A stretch of DNA of 52,755 nucleotides from Actinomycetes bacterium. GTDB taxonomy: Bacteria > Actinomycetota > Actinomycetes > Nanopelagicales > Nanopelagicaceae. Positions 41,053 through 48,143 of this stretch are shown one piece after another. How positions within the stretch are numbered: position 1 is the first letter of the stretch; every line of letters starts with the position of its first letter. The translations under genes were made by a program, and so were the position numbers. The notes beneath the pieces are model-generated. The model was not told the origin of the DNA. It did no database searches and worked only from the letters and a program-made list of their open reading frames with translations. The DNA lies in assembly GCA_025355765.1 (NCBI GenBank), contig JANXZB010000071.1, positions 1 through 52,755 of the forward strand, written 5' to 3'.

Positions 41053-41071
41053 TCGTTTCTTTAAGAAACGA
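41053..41071. terminator. Bidirectional hairpin between convergent genes
   Basis: TCGTTTC and GAAACGA form a 7-bp stem with a TTTAA loop, between the M24 stop (41044) and overlapping the malic-enzyme stop (41061). A/T residues flank it on both sides, but no long T-run is present. Confidence 0.35.
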
Positions 41072-42440
41072 TCTGCTTTACCGCCGCGGCAACTGCCTTG
41101 ACCACATTTGGATCAAAGACGCTCGGCACAATGAATGATGTATTGAGTTGTTCTGTCGAAACGCATCCTGCGATTGCTTCTGCGCATGCAACGAGAAGTT
41201 CATCCGTGATCATGTGAGCGTTTGCATCGAGAAGTCCGCGGAAGATTCCGGGGAAAGCCAATACATTGTTGATCTGATTTGGCTGGTCACTTCGTCCCGT
41301 CGCAACGATAGCTGCGTATTTGCGGGCGATGTATGGGTCGATCTCTGGGTCTGGATTGGCAAGGGCAAATACGATCGAATCTTTTGCCATTGAGGCAACG
41401 TCGCTCTCCTTCAAGATATTGCCGGCACTGACTCCGATGAACACATCTGCTCCAACAATTCCCTCGGTCATCTTGCCAACGAAATCATCGGGATTGCAGT
41501 TGTCGATGAACCATTGGCGCATTGGATCTTTCGTCACTGTGCCACTATTGATCGAACCTTTGGAATCAAAAGCAATAATGTTCTTCGCTCCACTGATGGA
41601 GAGTAGGCGCGCGATTGCAGTACCTGCTGCCCCGGCTCCGCTGATGACAATCTTGCAATCACCAATGTTCTTCTTCACTAACTTCAGGGAATTGGTCAAC
41701 GCCGCTAGAACGCAGATAGCGGTTCCGTGTTGGTCATCGTGGAACACAGGGATATCGAGAATCTCGCGGAGACGTCTTTCAACTTCAAAGCAACGAGGTG
41801 CGGAAATATCTTCCAGGTTGATGCCTCCGTAGACGGGGGCAATTAACTGAACTGTCCGTACGATTTCATCGACATCTTGGGTATCCAGGCAAACTGGCCA
41901 AGCATCGACGTCAGCAAAACGCTTGAAAAGTACTGCTTTTCCTTCCATAACGGGAAGTGCCGCGGTAGGTCCGATATTTCCAAGCCCGAGCACGGCTGAG
42001 CCATCTGTAACGATGGCCACGGTGTTTCGCTTGATTGTTAGGCGGCGGGCATCTGTTGGATCATCCACGATGGCTTGGCAGATGCGGGCAACTCCTGGTG
42101 TGTAGGCCCGAGAAAGGTCGTCACGGGTCTTAAGAGGCACCCTTGACTGGACTTCTAGTTTGCCGCCGAGGTGGAGAAGAAAGGTGCGGTCGCTGACTTT
42201 TCGAACGGTTAGTCCTGCATGAGCGCTGATTGCCTTGGTGATTTCCTCAGCGTGGTCGGCATTGATCGTGTCGCAAGTGACATCGACGACGACCTTGTCT
42301 AGTAGAGACTCAACGACATCAAGGGCGGTAATTGTGGCTCCAGCCTTTGTAATTGCCGCCGTCGCTTCTGCTACAGGCTGTGCTGATGGTGCGCCTTCAA
42401 CACGAATTGTGATGCCGTATCCGGGACTAGTCGATGCCAT
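41061..42440 (-). CDS. NAD(P)-dependent malic enzyme with N-terminal ACT domain
   Basis: A 459-residue malic enzyme that decarboxylates malate to pyruvate. Residues about 1-90 form an ACT-like regulatory domain (GITIRVEGAPSAQPVAEATAAI in parts), typical of actinobacterial enzymes. The catalytic part has YTPGVARICQAIV, VAIVTDGSAVLGLGNIG, KAVLFKRFADVDAW, FHDDQHGTAICVLAAL and the nucleotide site VISGAGAAGTAIARLL. The frame is open to 42500, but ATG 42440 gives the family N-terminus and lies one base after the upp stop, so it is translationally coupled to upp. Confidence 0.93.
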   Translation of the reverse strand: MASTSPGYGITIRVEGAPSAQPVAEATAAITKAGATITALDVVESLLDKVVVDVTCDTINADHAEEITKAISAHAGLTVRKVSDRTFLLHLGGKLEVQSRVPLKTRDDLSRAYTPGVARICQAIVDDPTDARRLTIKRNTVAIVTDGSAVLGLGNIGPTAALPVMEGKAVLFKRFADVDAWPVCLDTQDVDEIVRTVQLIAPVYGGINLEDISAPRCFEVERRLREILDIPVFHDDQHGTAICVLAALTNSLKLVKKNIGDCKIVISGAGAAGTAIARLLSISGAKNIIAFDSKGSINSGTVTKDPMRQWFIDNCNPDDFVGKMTEGIVGADVFIGVSAGNILKESDVASMAKDSIVFALANPDPEIDPYIARKYAAIVATGRSDQPNQINNVLAFPGIFRGLLDANAHMITDELLVACAEAIAGCVSTEQLNTSFIVPSVFDPNVVKAVAAAVKQIVS

Positions 42441-42441
42441 A

Positions 42442-43080
42442 TCAAACAACTCCATAAAGTCGGTCGCCCGCGTCACCCAGACCCGGCACGATGTAACCAT
42501 TTTCGTTTAGCTTTGTATCAAGTGCTCCCGTAACAACCGTAATTGGGACGAGACAGTTTTCGAAGGCTTTCTCCATGTAGGCGATGCCTTCGGGTGCAGC
42601 GATGATGCAAATGACAATAATGTCGGTGGCACCCAGATCAATTAAGTAATTGAGTGCGGCCACTAGTGTTCCGCCCGTTGCCAACATTGGGTCTAGTACA
42701 AAGCACTGTCGACCTGAAAGGTCATCGGGTAGTCGGTTGGCATAAGTGCTAGCCAATAACGTTTTCTCGTCTCGCACCATTCCCAAGAAACCAACCTCGG
42801 CTGTGGGAACCAAGCGGACCATTCCTTCGAGCATTCCAAGGCCAGCTCGCAAAATAGGTACAACAACTGGTCGTGGGTCTGCCATTTTCTCGCCTTGGGT
42901 AACAACTACAGGCGTCTTAATTGTCACAGTTTTCGTGCGCACTTCGCGTGTGGCCTCGTACGCGAGCAGTGTCACCAGTTCTTCTACTAGGCGACGAAAG
43001 GTCGGCGAGTCGGTGGTTTCATCGCGTAATACCGTCAATTTATGTGAGATCAATGGGTGATTAGCGACGTGGACTTTCAC
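42442..43080 (-). CDS. upp: Uracil phosphoribosyltransferase
   Basis: A 212-residue pyrimidine-salvage enzyme converting uracil and PRPP to UMP. Landmarks are [39 protein letters not shown], the PRPP loop [17 protein letters not shown] and the C-terminal [10 protein letters not shown]. Length is as usual. GTG start with a leaderless -10 hexamer. It is co-transcribed with the malic enzyme gene and divergent from the tRNA-deaminase-associated gene. Confidence 0.96.
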
Positions 43081-43093: not shown

Positions 43094-43160
43094 CAGGTCT
43101 TTTCTTCTTAAGAAATGAGTGTCAAGATGCAACCTAAGGGTATGTGAAACGGAGGCGACG

Positions 43161-43628
43161 ATGAGTGAGAACGTTGATGTCGCAGTAGCCGCTTGGCATG
43201 AAGAGGGACGCTGGAATCTCGCCAAACTGCCCAATCCGCATGATTTGGCTCACATTATTGATCGCTTGAAGAGCCAGCGAACCAATGGTGGGGCAATTGC
43301 GTTGATTGCAATCGATGAAGAATTCTTCATCGTCATCCGAGTTCTCGGCGCCCACATCAGCATGTTCCTCAGCGATGTTACTTGCGCGTTCGATTACGAA
43401 GTTGCATCGGACTTTATCGAGTTAGCCGATCTTCCTTTCCCTACCGAAGAGGACGAACCTATCCCCGTAGGTCACTTGGATATTTTGGTAGATCTAGGCA
43501 TGAACCACATGGAAATCTCGGCGCTCTGCGATGATGCCGAGTTATTTCCTGACGAACAACTAGATGCGATTGCCACACGCCTTGGTTTCGGTGAAGAGTT
43601 CCGAGAGTTACTTGAACTAGAAGTATGA
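43161..43628 (+). CDS. tRNA adenosine deaminase-associated protein
   Basis: A 155-residue acidic protein found next to tadA in many Actinobacteria and named for that association; no enzymatic motif is visible. Features are the N-terminal WHEEGRWNLAKL, a central FIVIRVLGAHISMFLSDVTCAFDY and the acidic EEDEPIPVGHLDILVDLGM. ATG 43161 has a GGAGG site and matches the family start; the frame is open to 43119. The tadA ATG overlaps its stop by four bases. It may assist or regulate the deaminase, which is an inference from context. Confidence 0.88.
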   Translation: MSENVDVAVAAWHEEGRWNLAKLPNPHDLAHIIDRLKSQRTNGGAIALIAIDEEFFIVIRVLGAHISMFLSDVTCAFDYEVASDFIELADLPFPTEEDEPIPVGHLDILVDLGMNHMEISALCDDAELFPDEQLDAIATRLGFGEEFRELLELEV

Positions 43629-44086
43629 GTTTTGAGGAAGCGATGGCATTAGCCATCAAAGTTGCCAAAGAGGCGACGATTGCAAGTGGAGATGTTCCAG
43701 TTGGCGCAGTCATCTTAAATAGCCGATTTGAAGTGGTCGCAACAGGAAGCAATGAACGCGAACTTGAGCATGATCCGACAGCTCATGCCGAAATTGTCGC
43801 GATGCGAAAAGCAGCAACCAAATTGGGAAGTTGGCGATTAGAGGATCACACTTTGGTCGTAACCCTTGAACCTTGTGCGATGTGCGCCGGTGCCATCGTT
43901 CAATCACGAATTCCCAGGGTGGTCTTCGGTGCTTGGGATGAGAAGGCCGGGGCCGTTGGATCGGTTTGGGACATATTGCGAGATCCTCGCACCTTGAACA
44001 GGCCTGAAGTGATCTCTGGGGTTCTGGCCACTGAATGCGCGCAACTGCTTCAAACCTTTTTCCAAGGGCAACGAAAAGGAAATTAG
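43625..44086 (+). CDS. tadA: tRNA adenosine(34) deaminase
   Basis: A 153-residue zinc deaminase that converts A34 to inosine in tRNA-Arg(ACG). The zinc-site motif HAE gives His54 and catalytic Glu56, and PCAMC gives Cys84 and Cys87. The following segment SRIPRVVFGAWDEKAGAVGS matches TadA rather than cytosine deaminases. The start overlaps the preceding stop (ATGA). A tRNA-Ser gene follows 20 bases downstream. Confidence 0.95.
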   Translation: MSFEEAMALAIKVAKEATIASGDVPVGAVILNSRFEVVATGSNERELEHDPTAHAEIVAMRKAATKLGSWRLEDHTLVVTLEPCAMCAGAIVQSRIPRVVFGAWDEKAGAVGSVWDILRDPRTLNRPEVISGVLATECAQLLQTFFQGQRKGN

Positions 44087-44105: not shown

Positions 44106-44195
44106 GGTGGCGTGTCCGAGCGGCCAAAGGAGCACGCCTCGAAAGCGTGTGTTGGGGAAACTCAACCGTGGGTTCAAATCCCACCGCCACCGCCA
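44106..44195 (+). tRNA. tRNA-Ser (anticodon CGA)
   Basis: Acceptor GGTGGCG pairs with CGCCACC at 44185-44191, discriminator G and encoded CCA follow. The anticodon stem CACGC/GCGTG encloses CTCGAAA, anticodon CGA. A long variable arm (TGTTGGGGAAACTCAACC) is typical of serine tRNA, and the T arm is GTGGG TTCAAAT CCCAC. Confidence 0.95.
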
Positions 44196-44199
44196 GTTA

Positions 44200-46566
44200 T
44201 TAAATGACGATCTCGTAGGACGGGTTGAGAATCGTTAGGGAACCATTGGTTTCTCCGACCATGCCCTCTGCAAGTAATTGGGAACCAACATCGAGACCGG
44301 AAATTTCACGTCTTCCCAAGAATTGAAGTGTTACGCCTCCAGTTTCGTCCCAGACTTCCACTTCAACTATTGGTGCAGAACCCCGCGGGGCCGTCTTGAT
44401 GGATGTAACTCGACCCTTAACATGCGCGCGACTACGCCAAGTGATCTTGCCGATAGGCATCACGTTCTCTGCGTAGTGACTAACAGGTTCATGGCTCATG
44501 AAGGAGACTGCGCTCGCTGGTTCGATCTTTTGTGCCTGTATTTTCTCCTGCACTTCTTGCACGACCTTGGTTGCTCCTGAAACATGGCTGTCATGGATGA
44601 CGACGCTCTGGCCTGAAATAATCTTTGCAACATCAAAGGGAATGATGGTCGCTACGACGCGCGAGAGTTGTGAGATTGGACGGGCAATTTCTTCCGCCGT
44701 TTGATCATGGAGTAATTTGCCAAGGATCGGAGTGTAGGAACGTCGAGGCAGGAGCAGGGTTAATTCCACATCAGGAGAAGTTGTCGCTCTAATGGCGTAG
44801 TCCATTGCCGCATTTGGGAGTCGACGATCTGGACAATCAATGAGTTCGAGGGTTACATCATCTAGAGCTGGCGCTTCCGCCCATGCCTTGCGGATATCCT
44901 CAGCACGTTGGTCATCAATGACGAAGTGAACGGCCGCGAGATTATGCGGATTGAGACTTCGTGCATATCGAACTGCCCCCACCGTTGCCACATCAACGCT
45001 GTCAACGAGGATAGTCACATCGTGGCGGCTGATGGAAGTGGCACGAGATTCTTCACTGCGGAAGTTCAGGGCCGCTTGTTCGCGTCTGTACTGGCGGTTG
45101 AGGCGAAGCAGAAGCACCACGGCAATTGGCGCGATGGTGATGACCAACCATGCGCCCTCGGTGAATTTAACTACCGCGAAGACGAGAACAACAATCACTG
45201 AAACGCTGCCAGAGAGTCCATTGATGAACATCTTGAGTTTCCAGTTACCGATTTTGTGTGTGTGTGCATGTTTGGCCATGCCAAAACCGGCGAGAGTGAA
45301 GCCGGTAAATACGCCCAGCGCGTAGAAGGCAACGAGGCGATCAACAGCGGCTCCTGTAATGATGACCAAGGCCGTTGCTGAACTTGCTAGGAAGATGATT
45401 CCATTTGAAAAAGATAAGCGGTGACCACGCTTGGTCAATTGGTGGGGCAAATATCCATCTGTCGCAACGAAATTGCAGAGAATCGGAAAGGCGTTGTACG
45501 TGGTGTTAGCACCGGCAAAGAGAATTAGCATCGTTGCAGCCTGAACGAAAACGAACAGCACTCTGCCGGTTGCACTTGATCCAAGGGATTCTTTGGCAAT
45601 TTGTGAGATGACCGTCGGCGTTCCCTTGTCGTATGGCATCGCGTGGATTCGTTGGGCAAACCAGGAGACTCCTACAACCAGCGTTCCCAAGATGACGCTC
45701 ATAGTGACCAGAGTCTTTCTGGCATTTTGAGCCTCTGGAACTTTGAATAATGCGACACCATCTGAAATGGCTTCCAGACCAGTGAGCGAGGATCCGCCAT
45801 TGGCAAAGGCTCGAAGAAGGATGAAGATCGCGCTGAAGGTAAGCAATCCTTGGGCGTGGCCCAGTTCTTTCGCACCTGGCAGATTAGTCGCCAGTACCGG
45901 CAGAGTCCCGGTGAATGCTTTGACGAGGCCCGTGATGAACACGATGGCCATGCCACCAATAAAGAGGTAGGTAGGCATCGCAAAGGATTTCCCGGCTTCC
46001 TTCACGCCGCGGAGATTTCCGTAAGTGATGAGAAGGATGATGCCGATTGTCATGTAGACCTTGCCCGCATGGAACGACGGGAAAGTTGAGATGATGGCCG
46101 CTACGCCCGCGGCAGATTGGATTGCGACGGTCACGATGTAGTCGAGCATTAACGCAACTGCGGCGATGATCGACATGACTGGCCCGAAGTTGTCTTTAGT
46201 GACGATGTAGGCCCCACCAGTTTTTGTGTAGACCTCAATGACGTTTCTATAGCTCAAAGTGATGATCGTGAGAATCGCAATGATGACCACCGTCATCGGC
46301 ATCATCAGCGCGAAGGAGGCCAAACCGAATGCAGGAAGCAGAGCGATCAAAATCTGCTCGCTGCCATAGGCCGATGAGGAGATGCAGTCGGAGGAAAGAA
46401 TTCCGAGTGCGAACCTCTTGGCAAGTCTCTGGTGCCCGAGGGTGTGACGGTTTAAAGGATTGCCTAAAAGGGCCTTCTTGATCTTGTAGACGATCGGATC
46501 CTTGAGGTGGGCATGCTCTTGCAGCGCTACCGGAGCTGGCGCATCGTCAGTCCAAGATTTAGGCAC
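44200..46566 (-). CDS. KimA-like potassium permease with C-terminal OB-fold domain
   Basis: A 788-residue APC-superfamily transporter. The N-terminus (YKIKKALLGNPLNRHTLGHQRLAKRFALGILSSDCISSSAYGSEQIL, in parts) and YRNVIEVYTKTGGAYIVTKDNFG match KimA/YdaO potassium-proton symporters, with about twelve membrane helices up to residue 500. A USP-like cytosolic domain follows (HDVTILVDSVDVATVGAVRYA to about 690). Residues 703-788 form an extra OB-fold-like domain (RAHVKGRVTSI, IVEVEVWDETGGVTLQF, DVGSQLLAEGMVG), not present in KimA. GTG 46566 was chosen because of a GGGGAG site five bases upstream; the upstream open frame to 46776 is not protein-like. Potassium as substrate is by homology. Confidence 0.85.
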   Translation of the reverse strand: MPKSWTDDAPAPVALQEHAHLKDPIVYKIKKALLGNPLNRHTLGHQRLAKRFALGILSSDCISSSAYGSEQILIALLPAFGLASFALMMPMTVVIIAILTIITLSYRNVIEVYTKTGGAYIVTKDNFGPVMSIIAAVALMLDYIVTVAIQSAAGVAAIISTFPSFHAGKVYMTIGIILLITYGNLRGVKEAGKSFAMPTYLFIGGMAIVFITGLVKAFTGTLPVLATNLPGAKELGHAQGLLTFSAIFILLRAFANGGSSLTGLEAISDGVALFKVPEAQNARKTLVTMSVILGTLVVGVSWFAQRIHAMPYDKGTPTVISQIAKESLGSSATGRVLFVFVQAATMLILFAGANTTYNAFPILCNFVATDGYLPHQLTKRGHRLSFSNGIIFLASSATALVIITGAAVDRLVAFYALGVFTGFTLAGFGMAKHAHTHKIGNWKLKMFINGLSGSVSVIVVLVFAVVKFTEGAWLVITIAPIAVVLLLRLNRQYRREQAALNFRSEESRATSISRHDVTILVDSVDVATVGAVRYARSLNPHNLAAVHFVIDDQRAEDIRKAWAEAPALDDVTLELIDCPDRRLPNAAMDYAIRATTSPDVELTLLLPRRSYTPILGKLLHDQTAEEIARPISQLSRVVATIIPFDVAKIISGQSVVIHDSHVSGATKVVQEVQEKIQAQKIEPASAVSFMSHEPVSHYAENVMPIGKITWRSRAHVKGRVTSIKTAPRGSAPIVEVEVWDETGGVTLQFLGRREISGLDVGSQLLAEGMVGETNGSLTILNPSYEIVI

Positions 46567-46724: not shown

Positions 46725-48143
46725 ATGCGTACACAGTTATATATCGACGGAAAATGGGTTGACGGCAACGCAACAATGCCGGTTTATGACCCCAGTGATG
46801 GTTCCGTTATCGCCGAAGTTGCGACAGCGGGAGAGGTCGAAGTTGAGGCCGCCCTTGAGGCCGCTCATCGTGCTTTCCCCGCGTGGGCCAAGACCGCTCC
46901 ACGCGTTCGAAGTGAGATGTTGCGCAAGGCATTTGAGATTATGACCGCAGAAAGTGATCAGATCGCGACATTGATCTCGCGAGAGAACGGAAAAGTCTTC
47001 GCGGATGCAAAAGGCGAAGTTGCTTATGCCGCCGAGTTCTTCCGTTGGTTTGCCGAAGAGGCAGTGCGCACTCCCGGAGACTTCCGTAAGTCCCCCAGTG
47101 GAGATAAGAGAATTCTTGTCACGCACCAACCCATTGGCGTCTCTCTCCTCATAACTCCATGGAACTACCCAGCAGGTATGGCAACTCGAAAGATCGGACC
47201 GGCACTCGCTGCTGGCTGCACTGTCATTCTTAAACCAGCGGGTGAGACTCCCCTGACTGCGCTCGCGATCGTCGACATTCTCGAAAGAGCTGGCGTGCCT
47301 AAGGGTGTAGTAAACGTAATTTTGCCAAAGCCTGTCGGGACAATCATTAGCAAGATGTTGCACGATCCACGAGTTAAGAACCTTTCTTTCACTGGATCTA
47401 CGGAAGTTGGTCGCGTCCTACTTCACGAGGCAGCGGATCAAGTAATTCGTTGCTCGATGGAACTGGGCGGTAACGCACCTGTTCTCGTATTTGACGATGC
47501 CGATGTCACAAAGGCAGTCGAAGGAATTATGGTTGCCAAGATGCGAAACGGCGGTGCTGCTTGCACTGCTGCGAACCGCATCTATGTGCAGCGACCAATC
47601 GCCGAGAAGTTAACGGCCGAATTGACCAAGGCTATGGAAGCCCTTCACATGGGAGCGCCACTTGAAGCAGGAATGAATCTTGGTGCGAGCGTTTCCATCA
47701 AGGAGCGCGACAAGATTGCCGGACTAGTCGATATGGCGGTTAGCCAAGGTGGGCTAGTCCGCACGGGTGGCAAAGTCCCCGCTGGTGCAGGAGCTTTCTA
47801 TCCGGCAACAGTGCTAACAGTTGCAAGCGATAACGAGATCCTCAAGAACGAGGTATTCGGACCCGTTGCACCCATTGTCATTTTCGATACCGATGAAGAG
47901 GGAATCGCACTGGCCAATAACACTGATTTTGGCCTCATTAGCTACGTCTTCTCAGGCGAACTTGGTCGTTCCATCCGCATTGCTGAGGCGATGGAATCCG
48001 GAATGGTCGCTATCAACCGCGGCGTCATTTCAGATCCTGCTGCACCCTTCGGAGGAATGAAGCAGAGTGGCCTTGGTCGCGAAGGCGGCTTCGACGGCAT
48101 TCACGAATTCCTTGAGACCAAGTACATCGGCGTCGAGATCTAA
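46725..48143 (+). CDS. gabD: NAD(P)-dependent succinate-semialdehyde dehydrogenase
   Basis: A 472-residue aldehyde dehydrogenase. Opening QLYIDGKWVDG, cofactor-site ITPWNYPAGMATRKIGPALAAG and LKPAGETPLTAL, NAD-loop FTGSTEVGR, general-base Glu246 in MELGGNAP, and nucleophile Cys280 in GGAACTAANR are seen in order. The C-terminal PFGGMKQSGLGREGG is typical of GabD-like enzymes. Oxidation of succinate semialdehyde to succinate is the best call; other short semialdehydes are possible. The gene is single, with a leaderless promoter, and its stop overlaps that of the convergent TMEM175-like pseudogene by three bases. Confidence 0.9.
   Translation: MRTQLYIDGKWVDGNATMPVYDPSDGSVIAEVATAGEVEVEAALEAAHRAFPAWAKTAPRVRSEMLRKAFEIMTAESDQIATLISRENGKVFADAKGEVAYAAEFFRWFAEEAVRTPGDFRKSPSGDKRILVTHQPIGVSLLITPWNYPAGMATRKIGPALAAGCTVILKPAGETPLTALAIVDILERAGVPKGVVNVILPKPVGTIISKMLHDPRVKNLSFTGSTEVGRVLLHEAADQVIRCSMELGGNAPVLVFDDADVTKAVEGIMVAKMRNGGAACTAANRIYVQRPIAEKLTAELTKAMEALHMGAPLEAGMNLGASVSIKERDKIAGLVDMAVSQGGLVRTGGKVPAGAGAFYPATVLTVASDNEILKNEVFGPVAPIVIFDTDEEGIALANNTDFGLISYVFSGELGRSIRIAEAMESGMVAINRGVISDPAAPFGGMKQSGLGREGGFDGIHEFLETKYIGVEI

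What the first reader, a model, noticed from the sequence alone, without database searches (positions are those of the whole stretch)
44200..46566. KimA-like potassium permease fused to an OB-fold domain
The permease part and USP-like domain match KimA. A further 86 residues (703-788) look like an OB-fold with a beta-barrel pattern and no membrane segment. To my recollection, in mycobacteria and Streptomyces a KimA-like permease lies near TrkA-type genes and a separate small OB-fold protein; here the two would be one polypeptide. An OB domain could sense a nucleotide (such as c-di-AMP) or RNA and gate potassium uptake.
Basis: partly seen in the sequence, partly recalled or inferred. Interest (0 to 1): 0.6.

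Follow-up and report, generated by a model that had tools for sequence, protein, structure and literature searches.

The report
Potassium importer with tethered OB-fold domain
In freshwater actinobacteria, the only potassium importer we could recognise is a KimA-type pump with an extra OB-fold domain (a small barrel that usually grips nucleic acids) tethered to its tail, apparently replacing a two-gene version found in other actinobacteria; the extra domain is probably a control module whose ligand is unknown.

Summary
Window 44200-46566(-) is one uninterrupted 788-aa ORF: a KimA-type permease, KimA's cytosolic domain, a ~50-residue disordered linker and a real OB-fold (residues 703-788). B. 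subtilis KimA ends where the linker starts, so the tail is not a normal part of KimA. The fusion is not a local oddity. It is near-universal in the host's order (freshwater acI, Nanopelagicales) and occurs in at least 17 families of Actinomycetota, in a permease clade separate from the classic permease that sits beside TrkA genes and a separate OB gene. In the host's family the classic locus keeps DUF3159, both TrkA genes and TrmA but has lost exactly the permease and the OB gene. One genus keeps that pair and lacks the fusion. TrkH and KdpA were not found and Kup was found in one genome, so KimA-OB is usually the only recognised K+ importer. Best reading: a K+/H+ symporter with a covalently attached OB control subunit, probably acting with the TrkA pair. 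The transporter role is strongly inferred; OB ligand and TrkA contact are untested.

The parts
44200..46566 (-). Complete KimA-OB fusion gene, 788 aa plus stop, GTG start
   Evidence: full-length homologues at 57-88% identity across the order
45067..46488 (-). Residues 27-500: LeuT-fold transmembrane domain with KimA K+/H+ residues D60, Y67, D142, T262, E265, Y415
   Evidence: PF13520; phmmer to KimA 6s3k E 7.9e-95; residue table for D36, Y43, T230, Y377; D117 and E233 equivalents read from the alignment; residue roles from PMC10284832 and PMC6994465
44611..45030 (-). Residues 513-652: KimA cytosolic domain; c-di-AMP pocket motif HNQS of KimA reads HDQT here, R337 of KimA is H375
   Evidence: Profile alignment to KimA; residue table
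44461..44610 (-). Residues 653-702: flexible linker (pLDDT mostly below 50 over 653-696); 29-75 residues long in homologues
44203..44460 (-). Residues 703-788: OB-fold domain; conserved G718, D740, G743, G751-R752-R753, G757, G761, G768, N781-P782, Y784
   Evidence: PF01336 above cut-off; model pLDDT 90.5; Foldseek; alignment of 52 OBs
46725..48143 (+). Divergent aldehyde dehydrogenase; neighbour kept across the order
   Evidence: PF00171; synteny
44106..44195 (+). tRNA-Ser(cga), ending 5 bases before the fusion gene's stop codon
43119..44086 (+). tRNA adenosine deaminase-associated protein (43119-43628) and TadA (43625-44086), convergent; conserved neighbours, no sign of a shared pathway

Best explanation
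The gene encodes a KimA-type K+/H+ symporter whose regulatory OB-fold subunit has become part of the same chain. The TMD imports K+ with protons; the dimeric cytosolic domain hangs under it; the OB is tethered by a ~50-residue flexible linker and acts in cis as a control module, as the separate OB protein does in trans at the classic actinobacterial locus OB-DUF3159-TrkA-TrkA-permease-TrmA. In the host's family the fusion replaced the classic permease plus OB, while the TrkA (RCK) pair was kept; with no TrkH found, the TrkA pair most likely acts on KimA-OB. Shown: fusion, OB fold (predicted), KimA homology and ion-site conservation, clade structure, loss of exactly two genes, absence of detectable DAC, TrkH and KdpA. 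Inferred: K+/H+ transport, regulation by the OB, link to TrkA. Not known: the OB ligand (nucleotide, nucleic acid or protein).
For: KimA match over the TMD (E 7.9e-95) and through the cytosolic domain with a profile; D36, Y43, T230 and Y377 kept in nearly all of 44 sequences. OB fold. Permease tree: classic clade and fused-type clade each at SH-aLRT 99. Permease followed directly by a separate OB gene in L086 and L088: the fusion's parts as neighbours. The host TrkA locus is dut-DUF3159-YwiC-TrkA-TrkA-TrmA with permease and OB missing; in 12 of 12 TrkA loci of the family TrmA sits directly on one side of the pair and DUF3159 (or YwiC in the host) on the other, with no permease between. Genus g8 shows the reverse: classic permease, TrkA and OB present, no fusion. 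TrkA_N in 41/41, TrkH 0/41, KdpA 0/46, Kup 1/46. In 60 genomes of the class examined for both (counted by hand), OB and KimA-like permease co-occur in 51, permease alone in 5 (one family), OB alone in 1, neither in 3. M. smegmatis under rifampicin selection: MSMEI_2699 (OB-fold) 11 vs 1 mutations, and trkB, two locus numbers on, 4 vs 0 (PMC10433840). Streptomyces OB cluster syntenic with trkA and kdpDE (PMC13118837). The paralog lies next to a KdpDE-like two-component pair.
Against: No experiment on any fusion protein. Co-occurrence and shared loci show association, not regulation. In some families fusion and classic locus coexist, so the fusion is not always a replacement. Two tandem relatives lack an OB (L078), so the OB is dispensable for some members. 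The fused gene does not sit next to TrkA in the host. 14 of 151 genomes of the order had no match, perhaps draft gaps.
Confidence: 0.62

Rival explanations
1. The OB is a scaffold that stabilises the dimer or docks the TrkA ring and binds no small molecule or nucleic acid.
For: Fused OBs have lost the basic charge of the separate ones: mean net charge 0.05 vs 4.0, window OB -2, unlike a typical nucleic-acid binder. TrkA pair kept without TrkH.
Against: The GRR motif and the G/D/NPxY core are kept in both fused and separate OBs, though core residues may be structural. No interaction was tested or modelled.
Confidence: 0.3
2. The OB senses c-di-AMP or another cyclic dinucleotide and gates K+ uptake.
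For: B. subtilis KimA is inhibited by c-di-AMP through its cytosolic domain (PMC10284832). Most sampled genomes with the fusion outside the host's order do have a DAC domain.
Against: No DAC in 41/41 genomes of the order, with a positive control in C. glutamicum, nor in g8, nor in G277, G664, G573 and G518. The known site is in the cytosolic domain, and its motif has changed in the fused clade.
Confidence: 0.06
3. The OB binds mRNA or tRNA and couples K+ import to translation, or tethers RNA at the membrane.
For: The best families and folds are nucleic-acid OBs: PF01336, RecG wedge, RPA, aaRS anticodon domains. The classic separate OBs are basic (pI about 9.9) and the locus carries TrmA.
Against: The window OB is acidic (pI 5.6) and the fused set is neutral on average. 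OB folds often bind other ligands.
Confidence: 0.12
4. The fusion is a passive accident: the OB is carried along without function.
For: Tandem relatives without an OB exist (L078); the OB is very divergent in three f4 members.
Against: Kept at 67-89% identity within the order and across many families, with invariant motif residues, and streamlined ~1.3 Mb genomes have not lost it.
Confidence: 0.06

Closest known systems
KimA of Bacillus subtilis (KUP family, APC superfamily; PDB 6s3k, 8b70, 8b71)
   Same: LeuT-fold TMD, conserved K+ and proton residues, cytosolic domain in the same place; top three Foldseek hits
   Different: KimA ends at residue 607 without linker or OB; c-di-AMP pocket HNQS and R337 read HDQT and H375 in the window protein
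Classic actinobacterial OB-DUF3159-TrkA-TrkA-permease-TrmA locus (Rv2694c to Rv2689c region of M. tuberculosis, recalled from memory; loci L052-L060, L090 here)
   Same: Same two components, KimA-like permease and related OB
   Different: Separate genes; the permease is a distinct clade, about 30-34% identical to the window protein; keeps the HNQS motif
Two-gene permease-then-OB arrangement (L086, L088)
   Same: Same permease clade as the window, OB gene directly downstream
   Different: Not fused
RecG wedge and PF01336 OB domains
   Same: Fold and weak sequence similarity (RecG best solved relative, E 7e-5 with the profile)
   Different: Those are nucleic-acid enzymes; no link to membrane transport

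Membership tests
KimA subfamily of KUP K+/H+ symporters | Sequence and fold homology over TMD and cytosolic domain | tested here: met
   phmmer E 7.9e-95, profile E 1.2e-190 to residue 606 of 607, Foldseek E 2.6e-34
KimA subfamily of KUP K+/H+ symporters | K+ and proton residues D36, Y43, D117, T230, E233, Y377 | tested here: met
   D60, Y67, T262, Y415; D142 and E265 read from the alignment and conserved columns
KimA subfamily of KUP K+/H+ symporters | K+/H+ symport activity and domain-swapped dimer | not testable with these tools
   Needs transport assay and structure of the dimer
c-di-AMP-controlled KimA | c-di-AMP pocket residues (R337, N580, Q581, S582) | tested here: not met
   Window has H, D, Q, T. 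Q581 is kept, and Thr at 582 occurs in other KUPs (PMC10284832), so this alone does not exclude binding
c-di-AMP-controlled KimA | A diadenylate cyclase in the host | tested here: not met
   PF02457 0 of 41 in the order, control positive
OB-fold domain (PF01336 clan) | OB barrel by profile and predicted structure | tested here: met
   (43 of 52 members hit PF01336)
Nucleic-acid-binding OB protein | Binds DNA or RNA | not testable with these tools
   Charge of fused OBs argues neither way strongly
TrkA/TrkH K+ uptake system | TrkH/KtrB membrane subunit | tested here: not met
   PF02386 0 of 41 although TrkA_N 41 of 41

The most novel reading that the evidence does not exclude
A KimA-type symporter clade in Actinomycetota, independent of c-di-AMP, whose gating is set by a built-in OB-fold sensor of a different nucleotide or of RNA, and which is the missing membrane partner of the TrkA pair in bacteria without TrkH. 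The same OB-KimA-TrkA set would run K+ uptake in trans in mycobacteria and Streptomyces.
Probability: 0.3. Interest if true: 0.78.

Novelty: new variant of a known kind. Interest (0 to 1): 0.55.

Why it matters
The fusion suggests that the little-studied OB protein of actinobacterial TrkA loci (11 vs 1 mutations under drug selection in M. smegmatis, PMC10433840) works on the KimA-like permease. It also offers an answer to an open point: the papers consulted describe the mycobacterial Trk system as CeoB and CeoC, both TrkA proteins, and a text search of them for TrkH, Rv2690c or KimA found nothing. For the acI freshwater actinobacteria it points to what is probably their main K+ importer, in cells where c-di-AMP control is apparently absent.

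Tried and rejected
Checked and rejected: (1) fusion as frameshift, misassembly or binning artefact - no internal stops, found in many genomes including single-contig ones. (2) The tail as a normal part of KimA - absent in 6s3k and in the classic clade. (3) The upstream TTG start (858 aa) - overlaps the divergent aldehyde dehydrogenase and is not supported by homologues. (4) c-di-AMP as ligand in this order. (5) One fusion with no reversals: the tree needs at least 3 to 4 changes of state, so separate and lost states occur inside the clade; direction not resolved. (6) OB sequence tree: only 92 columns, many open forks; classic OBs group together (with one long-branch row) apart from fused ones, and the one-clade test failed to run. 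(7) Single-sequence search of solved structures with the OB found nothing; the profile did. (9) Literature searches for OB-fold with KimA or TrkA found no report of the fusion; the library lacks most subscription papers.

Full report
WHAT IS THERE. The minus-strand ORF 44200-46566 encodes 788 residues. Residues 63-466 match AA_permease_2, and the last 86 residues, searched alone, match the OB-fold family PF01336 above its curated cut-off. In the whole protein the OB is missed by that model and seen only as a weak RecG-wedge match, so ordinary annotation would call the gene a plain permease. The full-length model has mean pLDDT 80.4, with residues 653-696 mostly disordered and a confident barrel at 703-788; the OB alone folds at pLDDT 90.5, and the listed Foldseek hits are OB-fold proteins, many of them nucleic-acid binders. 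B. subtilis KimA is the only solved relative by sequence and ends where the linker begins. The residues that bind K+ in KimA (PMC10284832) are D60, Y67, T262 and Y415 here and are nearly invariant in 44 relatives.

HOW WIDESPREAD. The host genome has a second copy (64% identity, also with an OB) beside a response regulator and a sensor kinase with DUF4118 that look like KdpDE. In the host's order, 137 of 151 genomes have a match, nearly all full length. The order is therefore taken to be the freshwater acI group, Nanopelagicales (partly inference). The gene neighbourhood (aldehyde dehydrogenase, TadA, deaminase-associated protein, upp) is conserved there. Outside the order the fusion occurs in ten further families of the class and in six families of other classes.

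TWO PERMEASE CLADES. On the permease tree, with the OB columns left out, the classic permeases form one clade and the fused or OB-adjacent ones another, each at SH-aLRT 99. Inside the second clade there are two-gene versions (L086, L088) and tandem copies without an OB (L078). Some genomes (for example G172, G193, G156, G181, G195) hold both a fusion and a classic locus; in G168 they are neighbours (L042).

A TWO-GENE REPLACEMENT. In other families the classic locus reads OB-DUF3159-TrkA-TrkA-permease-TrmA (some members of the set were not detected at every locus). In the host it reads dut-DUF3159-YwiC-TrkA-TrkA-TrmA: permease and OB are missing. In 12 of 12 TrkA loci of the host's family TrmA directly follows the TrkA pair, with no permease between. 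Genus g8 of the same family is the mirror image: it keeps the classic permease, TrkA and OB (L090) and has no fusion. The fusion therefore took the place of exactly the two parts it is made of. TrkA_N is in 41 of 41 genomes, TrkH in none, KdpA in none of 46, and Kup in one of 46, so KimA-OB is usually the only recognised K+ importer. Unrecognised transporters cannot be excluded.

C-DI-AMP. No DAC domain was found in 41 of 41 genomes of the order, while the same search rings in Corynebacterium glutamicum and other controls; g8 and several other fusion-bearing genomes also lack it, though most sampled fusion-bearing genomes outside the order have it. KimA's pocket motif HNQS is kept in the classic clade (one member has H in place of S) but is HD[R/Q/H/K][T/S] in the fused clade; R337 is H in the window's genus and A in the g8 permease. 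Other KUPs bind c-di-AMP with only part of this set (PMC10284832), so the motif argument is supportive, not decisive; the missing cyclase is the stronger point.

FUNCTION OF THE OB. Three lines tie this OB family to K+ control: position at the TrkA-permease locus, fusion or adjacency to the permease, and published selection data (M. smegmatis MSMEI_2699, OB-fold, 11 vs 1 mutations, with MSMEI_2701 trkB 4 vs 0 and the K+ channel gene mchK 8 vs 0; PMC10433840). That MSMEI_2699 is the separate OB of the classic locus is inferred from its locus number next to trkB. A Streptomyces synteny survey noted an OB protein next to trkA and kdpDE (PMC13118837). None of this shows what the OB binds. Fused OBs are neutral on average, separate ones basic, which leans slightly away from RNA or DNA for the fused form. 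I commit to a cis-acting control module acting with the TrkA pair as most likely, at about 0.6.

LIMITS. All conclusions are from sequence and predicted monomer structures. Pair counts between searches were made by hand at different E-value limits. Draft genomes limit absence claims, but the single-contig genomes in the sample agree. Literature novelty is judged only on the open-licence library.

Noticed in passing
L094:1936-4097 (own genome, contig C7): A sensor kinase (DUF4118, HisKA, HATPase; 478 aa) and an OmpR-type regulator lie directly upstream of the second KimA-OB copy. The kinase lacks the N-terminal KdpD and USP domains, and no KdpA was found in the genome, so a Kdp-type switch seems to control a KimA-OB gene.
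   Followed up: partly
G023:C7:25367-26683 (L176): One genome of the window's genus has a full-length Kup (PF02705) not found in the other 45 genomes checked; likely a recent acquisition.
   Followed up: no
G041, G066, G071, G093, G096, G102, G112, G119, G122, G125, G128, G139, G146, G148: 14 draft genomes of the order show no KimA, KdpA or Kup. Several belong to genera g3 and g7; it is unclear whether these are gaps or an unrecognised K+ importer.
   Followed up: partly
L078:5550-9644: Two tandem KimA-like permeases of the fused clade without OB, in a genome that also has a fused copy with a very divergent OB (L079).
   Followed up: partly
window 44106-44195: tRNA-Ser(cga) ends 5 bases before the stop codon of the fusion gene on the opposite strand; a very tight convergent arrangement.
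   Followed up: no
window 41061-42500: Malic enzyme with a weak N-terminal ACT-like match (residues 44-92), below the curated cut-off.
   Followed up: no
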